Source of the DNA: an uncultured Mucispirillum sp.
GTDB lineage: Bacteria; Chrysiogenota; Deferribacteres; Deferribacterales; Mucispirillaceae
Length of the DNA stretch: 64,000 bases
Reading direction: 5' to 3'
Assembly (NCBI GenBank): GCA_944324495.1
Contig: CALUWN010000004.1
Coordinates: 1-64,000 of the forward strand
Shown here: positions 17,192 through 22,290 of the stretch, piece after piece
Layout: every line of letters starts with the position of its first letter
Position numbering within the stretch: position 1 is the first letter of the stretch
Made by a program: the position numbers and the translations under genes
The notes under the pieces: generated by a model
The model's input: the letters and a program-made list of their open reading frames with translations, nothing else
Database searches by the model: none
What the model was told of the DNA's origin: nothing

Positions 17192-18228
17192 AAAAAATTC
17201 TTGTTGTGCTTATGGCAGCTTTTACACTTTTTGCCTGCACTAAAAAAAACGAAAACGAATTATTTGTTTATAACTGGTCTGAGTACATTCCTGATGAAGT
17301 TATTAAACAATTTGAAGCTGAAACTGGCATCAAAGTTCATTATACTACATATGACAGTAATGAAGCAATGTACTCAAAAATTAAACTTACAGGTGGAGCA
17401 GATTATGATGTAGCTGTACCATCAACTTACTATATTGAAAAAATGCAAAAAGAAGGCTTAATACAAGCTATTGATAAATCAAAATTAACTAATTTTAATA
17501 ACCTTAATCCTATGCTTGTAAACCAGCCATATGACCCTGAAAATAAATACAGCGTTCCTTTTATGTGGGGTACTACTGCCATTGGTGTTAATGCAAAATA
17601 TATTGACCCCGCAACAATTACTTCATGGGATGATTTATGGAGAGAAGAATTTAAAGGCAAATTAATGCTGCAAAATGATGTTAGGGAAGTATTCCATACT
17701 GCATTACGCTCCCTTGGTTATTCTGGTAATAGTAAAAATAAAGCTGAAATAGAAGAAGCATATAATAAATTAGTTAAATTAATGCCTTCTGTTACTTTAT
17801 TTAACTCTGATTCTCCAAGAACTCCATTTTTAAATGAAGAAGTATATATTGGTATTATGTGGAGCGGTGAAGCATATATGGCATCTTTAGAAAATAAAGA
17901 TATTAAATATATATACCCAAAAGATGGTGCTGCTGTATGGGTGGACAGCCTTGTTATTCCTAGCAAAGCAAGAAATGTAGAAAACGCATATAAATTTATT
18001 GATTTTATAATACGCCCAGAAATTTCTGCAAAAATTTCAAACTATGTAGGATATGCAACTCCATTAAAACAAGAAGTAGTTGGAAAATATTTAGATGAAA
18101 ATGCTAAAAACAGCAGAATTATCTTCCCTACTGATGAAGATTTACAAAATTCTGAATTTCAGCTTAATATTGAAGAAGCTCTACCAATATACAGCCAGTA
18201 CTGGAATAAGTTAAAAGTTAATCAATAA
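17188..18228 (+). CDS. potD: Polyamine-binding lipoprotein PotD
   Basis: 346 residues. A lipoprotein signal (KKILVVLMAAFTLFAC) has its lipobox cysteine at residue 17, so the protein is membrane-anchored on the periplasmic side. The mature start (LFVYNWSEYIPDEVI) is the classic PotD/PotF opening, and W/Y/D residues typical of the polyamine pocket are present. It delivers spermidine or putrescine to PotBC. The last 50 codons and the terminator are repeated at 21402-21672, beyond the inserted accessory cassette (see findings). Confidence 0.93.
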   Translation: MKKILVVLMAAFTLFACTKKNENELFVYNWSEYIPDEVIKQFEAETGIKVHYTTYDSNEAMYSKIKLTGGADYDVAVPSTYYIEKMQKEGLIQAIDKSKLTNFNNLNPMLVNQPYDPENKYSVPFMWGTTAIGVNAKYIDPATITSWDDLWREEFKGKLMLQNDVREVFHTALRSLGYSGNSKNKAEIEEAYNKLVKLMPSVTLFNSDSPRTPFLNEEVYIGIMWSGEAYMASLENKDIKYIYPKDGAAVWVDSLVIPSKARNVENAYKFIDFIIRPEISAKISNYVGYATPLKQEVVGKYLDENAKNSRIIFPTDEDLQNSEFQLNIEEALPIYSQYWNKLKVNQ

Positions 18229-18352
18229 GTTATATAATTTAAGCCCATTTGGTTATCAAATGGGCTTTTTTAATACAATATTCAGGCGATCAATAAAATA
18301 TAACTAACATATAAGTATAAGTTTACTAAATTTACTAAAAAATCAATAATAC
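18079..18352. repeat. Long direct repeat, copy 1 (potD 3' end, terminator and flank)
   Basis: Aligns with 21402-21672 in the same orientation. The coding part differs only by three synonymous changes over about 140 bases, then in the last few codons. The terminator is conserved apart from its loop. The non-coding flank is more diverged but still alignable to the AATAATAC at the end. Confidence 0.85.
18241..18270 (+). terminator. potABCD terminator
   Basis: 11-bp perfect arms (18241-18251 and 18257-18267) around the loop GTTAT, followed by a T tract. The same hairpin occurs at 21563-21589 with the loop reversed (ATAAC). Confidence 0.9.
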
Positions 18353-18585
18353 AAAAACTCATATATAAAATATCAAACATAATAGCAATGTAACATTTTA
18401 ATAAATGTATTGCTTATATTCATAAAAACTATGTAGTGTATGATTATAATTATCTTAATAAAATAAATCTATAGAAGTATTCTTTAAAAAGCCTTATATA
18501 TTTTATTATATTATTATTTGGAAGAATAATTAAGTCTGGATATTTTAAAAGGTTTTTCTAAAGTTACAAAAGTTATAAATAGAAC
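18353..18585. other. Non-coding A/T-rich stretch between potD repeat and RCC1 promoter
   Basis: No reading frame, hairpin or RNA gene recognised. It lies between the end of repeat copy 1 and the C-tract promoter, and it belongs to the inserted cassette. Confidence 0.5.
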
Positions 18586-18612
18586 TTGACATTCCCCCCC
18601 CCGTGATATAAT
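18586..18612 (+). promoter_or_regulatory. Probable phase-variable promoter: C9 tract between -35 and -10
   Basis: TTGACA (18586-18591) and TATAAT (18607-18612) are both perfect. The 15-bp spacer contains nine consecutive C residues (18594-18602). Gain or loss of C by slippage would move the spacer between 14 and 17 bp and so change promoter strength. This is the arrangement of known phase-variable promoters such as those of Neisseria porA and opc. The transcript would cover the RCC1 lipoprotein and the nuclease-like gene. Confidence 0.75.
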
Positions 18613-18641
18613 GATAAAAATTTTATCAAAAGGAGTATTGT

Positions 18642-20375
18642 ATGCAAAAGAAAAAACTTATAATAATACTAATTTATGCAGTTTTATCAATTTTTATGAT
18701 AACTGCTTGTAGTGACAGCAATAATGGAAGTAATAACAGTGGAAATAATGGAGGTGATGGTTCAGTTTTACCAGAACCAAAGCCTGATCCAAATGCTGTA
18801 AAAGAGTTTTATCACTTTACTACATGGAATAATACCTTAAGATTATGGCAAGACTCCCTATATGCAATTTTAGATAATGGTTCACTTTATGCCTGGGGCA
18901 ATAATAAAGATGGTCAGTTAGGATTAGGACTTACTGATGAATATGTAGCCTATAATAAAAAAGTTGATATTCCAGGTAAAGTAAAATTGATTAAATGTGC
19001 AGGTGATAACCCTACTGAATCAGCGTGTTATGTTATAACAGAAGATGGTGCACTTTATGTATGGGGTAAGAATAGTTATGGTCAGCTGGGAGTTGGTGAT
19101 GAAGTAAATAAAAACACACCTACTAAGGTTAATTTACCTAGCAAAATTAAAGAACTAATAACTACTGGTTCGTCAGTTTATGCTATACTGGAAGATGGTT
19201 CTCTTTATTCATGGGGTTATAATTATTATGGTGAACTGGGAGTTGGTGATGAAGTAAATAAAAACACACCTACTAAGGTTAATTTACCTAGCAAAATTAA
19301 AGAACTAATAACTACTGGTTCGTCAGTTTATGCTATACTGGAAGATGGTTCTCTTTATTCATGGGGTTATAATTATTATGGTGAACTGGGAGTTGGTGAT
19401 GAAGTAAATAAAAACACACCTACTAAGGTTAATTTACCTAGCAAAATTAAAGAACTAATAACTACTGGTTCATCAGTTTATGCATTAATGGAAGATAGTT
19501 CTCTTTATTCATGGGGTAATAATGAAAGTGGTCGGCTAGGAGTTGGTGATGAAGTAAATAAAAACACACCTACTAAGGTTAATTTACCTAGCAAAATTAA
19601 AGAACTAATAACTACTGGTTCATCAGTTTATGCATTAATGGAAGATAGTTCTCTTTATTCATGGGGTGAGAATATTTTTGGTCAGCTAGGAGTTGGTGAT
19701 GAAGTAAATAAAAAAAACACACCTACTAAGGTTAATTTACCTGGCAAAATTAAAGAACTAATAACTACTAATGGTTCATCAGTTTATGCATTAATGGAAG
19801 ATAGTTCTCTTTATTCATGGGGTTATAATAGTTATGGTCAGCTAGGGGTTGGTGATGAAGTAAATAGAAACACTCCTACTAAAGTTAACTTACCTGGCAA
19901 AATTAAAAAGCTGATAACTAGTTCTTCAGCATCTTATGCTATACTGGAAGATGGCTCTCTTTATTCATGGGGTGAGAATAATAGTGGTGAACTGGGAGTT
20001 GGAAGTAATGAAGATAAAAACACACCTACAAAAGTAACAGCTATTAATGGCAAGATTATGGATTTAATAATTAATAGTGATAAAAATTATCCTACCTATA
20101 AATCAATTTTTGCTATAATAAAAGATGGCTCTCTTTATGCATGGGGTAATAACAAAGGTGGTCAGCTTGGGATTGGAAGTAGGGAAGACAACATTAACTC
20201 ACCTACAAAAGTAACTGATATTAACGGTAAGGTTACAAAAGTAATGACATTTATATATGTATATGAAGAAATATTTAGCACATATGTAGATGCAAGCACA
20301 TATATTTTAACTGAAAGTAGCTCACTTTATACAACTTATGGTTGGTATACTTTTAGCCAAATACTATTTAATTAA
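18642..20375 (+). CDS. RCC1-repeat surface lipoprotein
   Basis: 577 residues. The lipoprotein signal ends in MITAC (about residue 23), followed by a Ser/Asn/Gly-rich linker. Then come at least nine RCC1 blades of about 50 residues, each with the signature SLY-x-WG-x-N-x-x-G-x-LG-x-G, and one degenerate blade. A standard RCC1 propeller has seven, so this one is longer or forms a different solenoid. Blades two to six are almost identical at DNA level (150-bp period). AAGGAG precedes the ATG. RCC1 proteins bind other macromolecules; bacterial surface forms are often adhesins or secreted effectors. The role here is unknown. The promoter has a C9 tract and the nuclease-like gene follows after 16 bases. 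Confidence 0.85.
   Translation: MQKKKLIIILIYAVLSIFMITACSDSNNGSNNSGNNGGDGSVLPEPKPDPNAVKEFYHFTTWNNTLRLWQDSLYAILDNGSLYAWGNNKDGQLGLGLTDEYVAYNKKVDIPGKVKLIKCAGDNPTESACYVITEDGALYVWGKNSYGQLGVGDEVNKNTPTKVNLPSKIKELITTGSSVYAILEDGSLYSWGYNYYGELGVGDEVNKNTPTKVNLPSKIKELITTGSSVYAILEDGSLYSWGYNYYGELGVGDEVNKNTPTKVNLPSKIKELITTGSSVYALMEDSSLYSWGNNESGRLGVGDEVNKNTPTKVNLPSKIKELITTGSSVYALMEDSSLYSWGENIFGQLGVGDEVNKKNTPTKVNLPGKIKELITTNGSSVYALMEDSSLYSWGYNSYGQLGVGDEVNRNTPTKVNLPGKIKKLITSSSASYAILEDGSLYSWGENNSGELGVGSNEDKNTPTKVTAINGKIMDLIINSDKNYPTYKSIFAIIKDGSLYAWGNNKGGQLGIGSREDNINSPTKVTDINGKVTKVMTFIYVYEEIFSTYVDASTYILTESSSLYTTYGWYTFSQILFN
19081..19986 (+). repeat. Tandem 150-bp in-frame repeats in the RCC1 gene
   Basis: Six consecutive units start at 19081, 19231, 19381, 19531, 19681 and 19837. 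All are 150 bp except the fifth, which has gained two in-frame triplets (156 bp). Units one and two are identical over 145 bp. Units three and four share the same variants (ATTAATGGAAGATAG). The near-identity implies recent expansion and makes copy-number change by recombination likely. Confidence 0.9.
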
Positions 20376-20391
20376 TAATAGGAGAATTAAT

Positions 20392-21393
20392 ATGAATAAA
20401 CCAAATTTATTTGAAATAGGCACAAATGAACTTGCTCAAGATGCATTTTTAACGTGGCTTATTTCTTATGCTGATAATCAATATATAGAACATAAAGAAT
20501 TAAATACTTTGGCAAAAGATTTTATTAAAATGATTATTGGTAATGAAAACCTAAATATAGAACAAGTATATTGTTGGAGGCAGTGGGAAAAAATAGATAT
20601 ATCTGTTACAGTTAATAAAAAATATTTTATAATTATTGAAGATAAAACTGGAACAAACCAGCATGGAAACCAGTTAGCAAATTATAAAGAAAAAGCACAA
20701 AACCATTGCAATGAAAATAATTTAGAACTTGTATGTGTATTTCTTAAAACAAGAGATGACAGCACATATATTGTTAATTCTATAGAAAGAGAAAACTACA
20801 AATATATATCAAGAAATGATTTACTATCACTTTTTGAAAAACACAGCCATATAAAAAATGATATATTTATAGATTATTTTGAACGTCTTAAAAATATCGA
20901 AGCAAAAACAAATTCATATAAAACTGATTTGTCATCTATTAAGAAAAGTTATGATGCATGCTGTGGATTTTATAAAGAACTAGAAAAACGGATATATACT
21001 CGCTTAAAAGAAAAATCTATGGATAATGTGGTTTGTAATTGGGAACAGGTAAATAATCCTGGTGGAATGTTTCTCGGTTTTTGGTTTTATCCTGCAAATT
21101 ATCATAAATCTAACATGTATTTTCAAATAGAAAATTATTTTGATAAAAAAGATAAGATTTTATTGATTATTAAAACAGAATCAAAAGATAGAAATGAAAT
21201 AAATAAAATGCTTGATATTGCATACAAAACTTGTGAAAAGTATAATATTAATATTGAAAGAGTAAGCAGGTTAAAAATATATACATGGACACCTATTGCT
21301 TATATTAAAAATGATATATTTACTGGAACATATGAAGAATGTTTCAATAAAATAGAGCATATTTTGGATATGTTTGATAATTGGTGCATGTAA
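20392..21393 (+). CDS. PD-(D/E)XK nuclease superfamily protein
   Basis: 333 residues from the ATG at 20392, which has AGGAGA 7-8 bases upstream. A longer frame from 20338 lacks a ribosome site and overlaps the RCC1 gene. The motif set of PD-(D/E)XK proteins is clear: E13 in the first helix, D69 in the strand EKIDISV, then E83-D84-K85 in FIIIEDK, then a Q-x-x-x-Y helix (QLANYKEKA). The last 150 residues are not recognised. Relatives annotated only as PD-(D/E)XK family nucleases are scattered in gut bacteria. It is probably co-transcribed with the RCC1 gene. DNA cleavage and a defence role are inferred from the fold only. Confidence 0.75.
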   Translation: MNKPNLFEIGTNELAQDAFLTWLISYADNQYIEHKELNTLAKDFIKMIIGNENLNIEQVYCWRQWEKIDISVTVNKKYFIIIEDKTGTNQHGNQLANYKEKAQNHCNENNLELVCVFLKTRDDSTYIVNSIERENYKYISRNDLLSLFEKHSHIKNDIFIDYFERLKNIEAKTNSYKTDLSSIKKSYDACCGFYKELEKRIYTRLKEKSMDNVVCNWEQVNNPGGMFLGFWFYPANYHKSNMYFQIENYFDKKDKILLIIKTESKDRNEINKMLDIAYKTCEKYNINIERVSRLKIYTWTPIAYIKNDIFTGTYEECFNKIEHILDMFDNWCM

Positions 21394-21401
21394 AAAAAAA
21401 T

Positions 21402-21554
21402 GTTGGAAAATATTTAGATGAAAATGCTAAAAACAGCAGAATTATCTTCCCTACTGATGAAGATTTACAAAATTCTGAATTCCAGCTTAATATTGAAGAA
21501 GCTCTGCCAATATACAGCCAGTACTGGAATAAATTAAAAGTTGGTACAAATTAA
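21402..21554 (+). pseudogene. potD 3'-end remnant
   Basis: 51 codons without a start that encode the PotD C-terminus from VGKYLDEN through YSQYWNKLKV, then end in GTN and stop instead of the NQ and stop of the intact gene. It lies eight bases after the stop codon of the nuclease-like gene. Only synonymous differences separate it from the intact copy in the aligned coding part, so the duplication is recent or has been kept similar by recombination. Confidence 0.9.
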
Positions 21555-21562
21555 TAACCTTT

Positions 21563-21592
21563 AAGCCCATTTGATAACCAAATGGGCTTTTT
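21563..21592 (+). terminator. Duplicated pot terminator with inverted loop
   Basis: The same 11-bp arms as 18241-18267, but the 5-nt loop is ATAAC, the exact reverse complement of GTTAT. A T tract follows. It would terminate the RCC1-nuclease transcript. Confidence 0.85.
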
Positions 21593-21701
21593 AGTGTCAT
21601 ATTTAAAGTTTAAAATATAATATAAGATATATAAGTATAAGTTTACTCAATTAATTACTGAACCAATAATACTAAAAATAATAAATAAATCATTGAATAA
21701 A

Positions 21702-21740
21702 CTAAACCCCATTTATAAGCTATACAAATAGGGTTTAGCT
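21702..21740 (-). terminator. Probable terminator of the 174-residue protein gene
   Basis: Imperfect inverted repeat with CTAAACCCC-ATTT against AAATAGGGTTTAG. It lies 15 bases downstream of the stop codon on the minus strand, with an A/T-rich flank. Confidence 0.55.
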
Positions 21741-21754
21741 TATAATTAACAATA

Positions 21755-22279
21755 TTAATCTAATATAACAGGTTGTTTAATGATTTTAGAAAAATCTTTT
21801 TCCATTTCTTTTTTAACTTCATTTAATTGCTTTAATTTATCCTCATATTCTTTGATTATTTCTTCTTCGTTATTATAACCATTACCAAGCATAATATCAC
21901 TTGGAGTTAATGCTAGAGAAAGTGCCATATCTATCTTTAATTTCTGTCTTTCAATGAAATTATCCATATATTCCTGTGCCATACTTGTTTTAAGGTCATC
22001 TCTTAAACTTTCTAAATCATCAATAAAATTATTTTTTATATTATCAATTTCTACAGTAAAATTATTGAATTGGCTTATATTTCCTGTTGGTAATGAATTT
22101 ATAGATTGAGTAATTTCAGACGTAAATTTTTCTACTAATATGGCTTTTTTCTGATTAAATATTTTAATATCATCCATTAAATCAGCCTTATTAATTGAAT
22201 TTTTATACAAATAATATACACCAATAGCAGTTGCTAAAACAACTAAAACAATAAAAGGTATTAATAAACTTTTTTTCAT
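21755..22279 (-). CDS. Membrane-anchored coiled-coil protein of unknown function
   Basis: 174 residues. An N-terminal transmembrane segment (about residues 5-24, LLIPFIVLVVLATAIGVYYL) is followed by a long charged helical region with heptad-like spacing (DIKIFNQKKAILVEKF, then EEEIIKEYEDKLKQLNEVKK). No family recognised. The start is directly preceded by a run of eight G residues on its own strand (22283-22290), which takes the place of a normal ribosome site; see findings. It lies just outside the right end of the potD-repeat cassette. Confidence 0.6.
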   Translation of the reverse strand: MKKSLLIPFIVLVVLATAIGVYYLYKNSINKADLMDDIKIFNQKKAILVEKFTSEITQSINSLPTGNISQFNNFTVEIDNIKNNFIDDLESLRDDLKTSMAQEYMDNFIERQKLKIDMALSLALTPSDIMLGNGYNNEEEIIKEYEDKLKQLNEVKKEMEKDFSKIIKQPVILD

Positions 22280-22282
22280 ATA

Positions 22283-22290
22283 CCCCCCCC
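22283..22290 (-). promoter_or_regulatory. G8 tract serving as ribosome site of the 174-residue protein gene
   Basis: Eight G residues on the minus strand, three bases before the ATG at 22279. No other Shine-Dalgarno sequence fits except AGGUU just upstream of the tract, whose distance from the ATG depends on tract length. Confidence 0.55.

What the first reader, a model, noticed from the sequence alone, without database searches (positions are those of the whole stretch)
18586..18612. C9 tract in the spacer of a perfect -35/-10 promoter: a phase-variable switch
Consensus TTGACA and TATAAT are separated by 15 bp, of which nine are C. Slippage by one or two bases gives 16 or 17 bp, near optimum, so present expression may be low and reversible. 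C or G tracts of this length are rare in a 30% G+C genome. This is the layout of known phase-variable promoters (Neisseria porA and opc; Haemophilus hif uses a dinucleotide repeat). The switched genes would be a surface lipoprotein and a nuclease-like protein.
Basis: partly seen in the sequence, partly recalled or inferred. Interest (0 to 1): 0.8.

Follow-up and report, generated by a model that had tools for sequence, protein, structure and literature searches.

The report
Poly-C promoter switch for Mucispirillum lipoproteins
A run of nine Cs sits between the two contact boxes of a promoter for a surface lipoprotein in the mouse-gut bacterium Mucispirillum, and the same arrangement recurs before many other surface genes in the genus, so it is probably a slippage-prone on/off or volume switch of a known type that I found no earlier report of in this phylum.

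Summary
In detail: TTGACA, a 15-nt spacer containing C9, then TATAAT, 29 nt before an RCC1-repeat lipoprotein gene that is followed by a PDDEXK_4 nuclease gene. The host is Mucispirillum (Deferribacterota). The site is not isolated. A relaxed pattern finds 58 such promoters in 9 of 10 Mucispirillum genomes, against 1 for the reversed-pattern control. The genome holds 37 C/G tracts of 8-11, a population clearly separate from ordinary runs (which end at 5-6). Eighteen tracts lie inside reading frames, 8 in frame and 10 out of frame. Orthologous tracts differ by one base between species. Genes behind the C-tract promoters are enriched for lipoproteins (9 of 17 families versus 7% of ORFs). A slippage-variable promoter family within a large phasome is the best reading. 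Promoters without C tracts peak at 15-16 bp, C-tract promoters sit at 15 bp in 38 of 58, and a paralogue with a broken tract also has 15 bp, so C9 is probably an ON state. Switching itself is not shown; no reads or same-species isolates were available. Type: new member of a known kind (Neisseria fetA/opc/porA).

The parts
18586..18591 (+). -35 hexamer TTGACA (perfect consensus)
18592..18606 (+). 15-nt spacer TT-C9-GTGA
   Evidence: same 2+9+4 layout in 32 of 58 genus promoters
18594..18602 (+). C9 homopolymer, the putative slippage tract
18604..18606 (+). TGA: extended -10 motif (TGn)
   Evidence: sequence; recurrent in the promoter family
18607..18612 (+). -10 hexamer TATAAT; transcription start expected about 7 nt downstream (inferred)
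18628..18635 (+). Shine-Dalgarno AAAAGGAG
   Evidence: sequence
18642..20375 (+). RCC1-repeat surface lipoprotein, 577 aa, lipobox ITAC (Cys23), tandem 150-nt repeats
20392..21393 (+). PDDEXK_4 nuclease-like protein, 333 aa, 16 nt after the lipoprotein gene with no terminator between: probably co-transcribed (inferred)
21563..21589 (+). intrinsic-terminator-like hairpin that would end the two-gene unit

Best explanation
The site is a sigma-70-type promoter whose spacer carries a slippage-prone C tract. Slipped-strand mispairing would add or remove single Cs and so change the distance between the -35 and -10 boxes, which changes transcription of the RCC1 lipoprotein and nuclease genes in a heritable, reversible way. 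C9 gives 15 bp, which is the usual spacing in this genus, so the assembled state is most likely ON; loss of one C (14 bp) or gain of several (18 bp or more) would lower it, and 16-17 bp should stay active. It is one of about six such promoters in this genome and part of a larger set of about 37 C/G-tract loci, many of them inside reading frames of cell-envelope genes. Shown: the layout, its recurrence, the separate tract population, the lipoprotein bias and the tract differences between species. Inferred: slippage within a clone, the effect of length on transcription, the ON assignment and co-transcription.
For: 58 genus promoters of this layout versus 1 in the reversed control. Spacer 15 in 38 of 58 and 14-17 in 54 of 58; non-C flanks add up to 6 in 45 of 58 whether split 2+4, 3+3 or 4+2, so total spacing is kept rather than one copied sequence. 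Three promoters in another genus of the family with different flanks are also 15 bp. Promoters without C tracts peak at 15-16 bp. A paralogous outer-membrane-protein promoter in L061 has its tract broken to C5 by substitutions and still has 15 bp. Upstream flanks of the RCC1-family promoters differ between species groups while the 27-bp module is kept; flanks of different promoters in this genome are about 25-50% identical. Tract population separate from ordinary runs. Eighteen mid-gene tracts, 8 in frame and 10 out of frame. Orthologous tracts differ by one base: coding C10/C9, C10/C11, C9/C10; promoter C10/C10/C9 and C9/C8/C8. Lipoprotein enrichment 9/17 families versus 19/261 ORFs, p = 4e-6.
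Against: No within-clone or within-species length variation could be examined. At this gene family all five species show C9, and the two nearest (G000, G005) share a recently exchanged segment, so they are not independent. MutS1 and MutL are present, so slippage may be slow. The extended -10 could reduce dependence on -35 spacing. Nine is short compared with many switching tracts in Neisseria (fetA C10-C14, PMC5320596).
Confidence: 0.75

Rival explanations
1. The C9 spacer is a fixed promoter element: a set of lipoprotein genes shares a stereotyped promoter in which C9 is read by a dedicated regulator, or shapes the DNA, and length changes are not used for regulation.
For: The 27-bp module is nearly invariant (32 of 58 have exactly 2+9+4) and is kept while the flanks diverge. 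All five RCC1-family promoters are C9.
Against: C9 is equally the mode of tracts elsewhere (p = 0.32), including tracts inside genes. Tracts of 7, 8, 10 and 11 occur in other promoters of the set, and orthologous promoters differ in length.
Confidence: 0.13
2. Phase variation works: C9 is the low state because 15 bp is too short, and C10-C11 is the high state.
For: General textbook preference for 17 bp (own knowledge); two MNKSLISILLV-family promoters are C10 with 17 bp.
Against: 15-16 bp is the commonest spacing of consensus promoters in this genus, and C-tract promoters settle at 15 bp whatever their flanks. The broken-tract paralogue keeps 15 bp.
Confidence: 0.1
3. The tract is a neutral homopolymer or an assembly artefact with no regulatory role.
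For: Tract lengths in draft assemblies are consensus values, and several of the genomes are MAGs.
Against: Strong enrichment and placement: 58 versus 1 for the control; lengths 7-11 all occur, so assembly does not force 9; a one-contig genome (G002) shows the same distribution.
Confidence: 0.02

Closest known systems
Neisseria fetA (frpB) promoter, poly-C between -10 and -35
   Same: C tract in the spacer of a surface-protein promoter; tract length alters expression (PMC5320596, citing Carson 2000); one scheme scores 9C as the high state (PMC4235727, Table 2).
   Different: Unrelated organism and gene; here both boxes are near-consensus, an extended -10 is present, and the module recurs before many gene families. 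Switching is not shown here.
Neisseria opc and porA promoters
   Same: Unstable homopolymer between -10 and -35 thought to alter sigma-factor binding (PMC2791445).
   Different: In Neisseria there are a few single promoters; here about six per genome of one stereotype, mostly for lipoproteins.
Campylobacter/Helicobacter poly-G phasomes
   Same: Tens of G/C tracts, many inside envelope genes, in and out of frame, in an A+T-rich gut bacterium (PMC8355987, PMC2823697).
   Different: Here there is also a sizeable transcriptional arm of promoter-spacer tracts; MutS1 and MutL are present; the phylum is Deferribacterota.
Mycoplasma hyorhinis vlp lipoprotein promoters (recalled, not verified here)
   Same: Homopolymer in the promoter region of a lipoprotein gene family.
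   Different: Poly-A rather than poly-C, one tandem gene cluster rather than scattered unrelated lipoprotein families.

Membership tests
Transcriptionally phase-variable promoter (homopolymer in the -35/-10 spacer) | Homopolymer lies between recognisable -35 and -10 boxes upstream of a gene | tested here: met
Transcriptionally phase-variable promoter (homopolymer in the -35/-10 spacer) | Tract longer than the composition predicts | tested here: met
   one search run-length histogram; shuffles of the window
Transcriptionally phase-variable promoter (homopolymer in the -35/-10 spacer) | Tract length varies within a clone or between isolates of a species | not testable with these tools
   one genome per species; no reads. 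Between species: all C9 at this gene family, differences at other promoters
Transcriptionally phase-variable promoter (homopolymer in the -35/-10 spacer) | Transcription depends on tract length | not testable with these tools
   no expression data
Transcriptionally phase-variable promoter (homopolymer in the -35/-10 spacer) | Controlled gene is a surface or envelope component | tested here: met
   lipobox ITAC, Cys23; set-wide lipoprotein enrichment
Genome with a simple-sequence phasome | Many tracts inside genes, in mixed in-frame and out-of-frame states | tested here: met
   8 in frame, 10 out of frame; envelope functions in the in-frame genes scanned

The most novel reading that the evidence does not exclude
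The 27-bp module TTGACATT-C9-RTGATATAATG is a shared, transferable promoter cassette that ties dozens of unrelated surface lipoprotein genes of a gut genus into one stochastic or factor-controlled regulon, with C9 itself acting as a promoter element read by a dedicated factor rather than only as a slippage site.
Probability: 0.13. Interest if true: 0.75.

Novelty: new member of a known kind. Interest (0 to 1): 0.55.

Why it matters
[quoted passage not shown] If many of its surface lipoproteins and envelope enzymes switch by tract slippage, clonal stocks used in gnotobiotic work would be mixtures of surface types. That would bear on immune recognition, phage sensitivity and reproducibility. I found no report of phase variation in this genus (main text of the genome paper), and the claim is directly testable with existing reads.

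Tried and rejected
First guess of Brachyspira as host: rejected by named relatives, so literature searches were aimed at the wrong genus. Plasmid search of the upstream region: no match. Loss of mismatch repair as cause of long tracts: rejected, MutS1 and MutL are present in this genome. C9 as promoter-specific length: rejected, same share elsewhere. A dispersed mobile repeat carrying the promoter: flanks of different promoters are about 25-50% identical, no shared element. Poly-C tracts limited to this family: not so; other Deferribacterota have some C9 runs, some probably assembly ends, but the promoter layout is nearly confined to Mucispirillum plus one genus of its family. PADLOC: only weak PDC-S26 hits for the nuclease. 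Within-species variation could not be examined.

Full report
Observation. The sequence at 18586-18612 reads TTGACA-TTCCCCCCCCCGTGA-TATAAT: perfect -35 and -10 hexamers, 15 bp apart, with C9 at 18594-18602. The -10 is preceded by TGA, an extended -10. A ribosome-binding site (AAAAGGAG) and ATG 18642 follow. The gene is a 577-aa lipoprotein with RCC1 repeats; 16 nt after its stop comes a 333-aa PDDEXK_4 nuclease-like gene, and a terminator-like hairpin lies at 21563-21589.

Host. The polyamine-type binding protein upstream is 98-99% identical to Mucispirillum MAGs, so the window comes from Mucispirillum (Deferribacterota), 2.43 Mb in 62 contigs.

Is it chance? No. The genome has 37 C/G tracts of 8 or more. 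In 240 kb that contain all of them, C/G runs fall off geometrically to 36 of length 5 and 1 of length 6, none of length 7, and then rise to 3, 25, 8 and 1 for lengths 8 to 11. These tracts are a population of their own.

The promoter recurs. In this genome five other tracts lie between -35 and -10 boxes. In the genus, TTGAYA-(0-5)-C6 or more-(2-12)-TANAAT occurs 58 times in 9 of 10 genomes, with one match for the reversed-pattern control. In the rest of the phylum there are three more in one genus of the same family, all with 15 bp, and one weak match elsewhere. Flanks of different promoters in this genome are only about 25-50% identical, so this is not a dispersed repeat.

Spacing. Tract length is 9 in 43 of 58 and 7-11 in all; spacer is 15 in 38 of 58 and 14-17 in 54. 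The bases around the tract add up to six in 45 of 58, split 2+4, 3+3 or 4+2. Total spacing at the modal tract length therefore seems to be what is kept. To ask whether 15 bp is poor in this host, I looked at promoters without a C tract. Consensus sites in the genus, deduplicated, peak at 15 and 16 bp (11 and 13 of 51). Sites with at most one mismatch that lie upstream of genes show 5, 5 and 3 at 15, 16 and 17 bp and none at 13 or 14, while sites inside genes show no peak. Numbers are small, but 15 bp is normal here. A tandem paralogue in L061 has TTGACA-TTCCCCCATTCAAGA-TATAGT: the tract is broken by substitutions and the 15 bp remain.

What the promoters drive. Of 17 protein families behind these promoters, 9 are lipoproteins by a simple lipobox rule, against 19 of 261 ORFs in the same kind of DNA (p = 4e-6). 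Families were joined by BLAST hits that include signal peptides, so the family count is approximate. Others carry signal peptides, such as the outer-membrane-like proteins of L061 and L072.

The other tracts. Eighteen tracts lie well inside reading frames: 8 with the same frame open on both sides, 10 with the frame broken at the tract and a long open frame continuing in another phase. In-frame examples include an arylsulfotransferase, a Big_2 protein, a sulfatase-fold membrane protein, an MBOAT acyltransferase and DUF6056. Such genes are typical of phase-variable envelope loci (general knowledge).

Does length vary? Between species, yes at several tracts: coding tracts C10/C9, C10/C11 and C9/C9/C10/C10/C9/C9; promoter tracts C10/C10/C9 and C9/C8/C8 in two orthologue sets. 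At the RCC1 family all five species have C9. G000 and G005 are not independent there: DNA from the promoter through the first 600 bp is 99-100% identical and the nuclease gene is 100% identical over 1002 bp, although the neighbouring binding-protein gene is 95.9%. The share of C9 at promoters (43/56) does not differ from other tracts (48/71, p = 0.32), so constancy of C9 neither proves nor refutes slippage. MutS1 and MutL are encoded. No reads or same-species isolates were available.

Comparison. The layout matches fetA, opc and porA of Neisseria, where homopolymers between -10 and -35 change expression (PMC2791445, PMC5320596; PMC4235727 lists fetA 9C as a high state). It meets the structural features of that class; the two functional ones (variation in a clone, effect on transcription) are untested. 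I found no mention of phase variation for Mucispirillum in the library searched, which does not cover most subscription papers.

Verdict. A real, non-random feature; most likely a member of a slippage-variable promoter family that is part of a sizeable phasome. New as an instance and in its scale for this phylum, not a new kind of mechanism.

Noticed in passing
window 22283-22290: A second tract, C8 on the + strand (G8 on the coding strand), lies 3 nt upstream of the ATG of the minus-strand 174-aa gene 21755-22279, in the place of the Shine-Dalgarno sequence; slippage there could change translation start efficiency.
   Followed up: partly
window 18079-18384 and 21402-21704: The 3' end of the binding-protein gene with its terminator is repeated (141 nt at 98%, then weaker) on both sides of the RCC1-nuclease pair, as if the pair had been inserted; it is absent between the same neighbours in L077, L078 and L079. 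Recombination between the repeats could delete it.
   Followed up: partly
window 20388-21387 versus L075: The nuclease gene is 100% identical in DNA over 1002 bp to that of another Mucispirillum species whose adjacent gene is 95.9% identical: recent transfer or conversion.
   Followed up: partly
window 19012-20067: 150-nt tandem repeats in the RCC1 lipoprotein gene are reshuffled between this genome and L075 while the ends of the gene are nearly identical.
   Followed up: no
L041:3047-3055: A G9 tract on the coding strand sits in a 19-bp spacer, TTGACA-TTTAAGGCTC-G9-TATGAT, before a secreted 113-aa protein: possibly a long-spacer OFF example of the same logic.
   Followed up: partly
window 18612-18628: An inverted repeat TGATAAAA-A-TTTTATCA covers the expected transcription start; it is present in G005 but not in the other three species, so it may be no operator.
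   Followed up: partly
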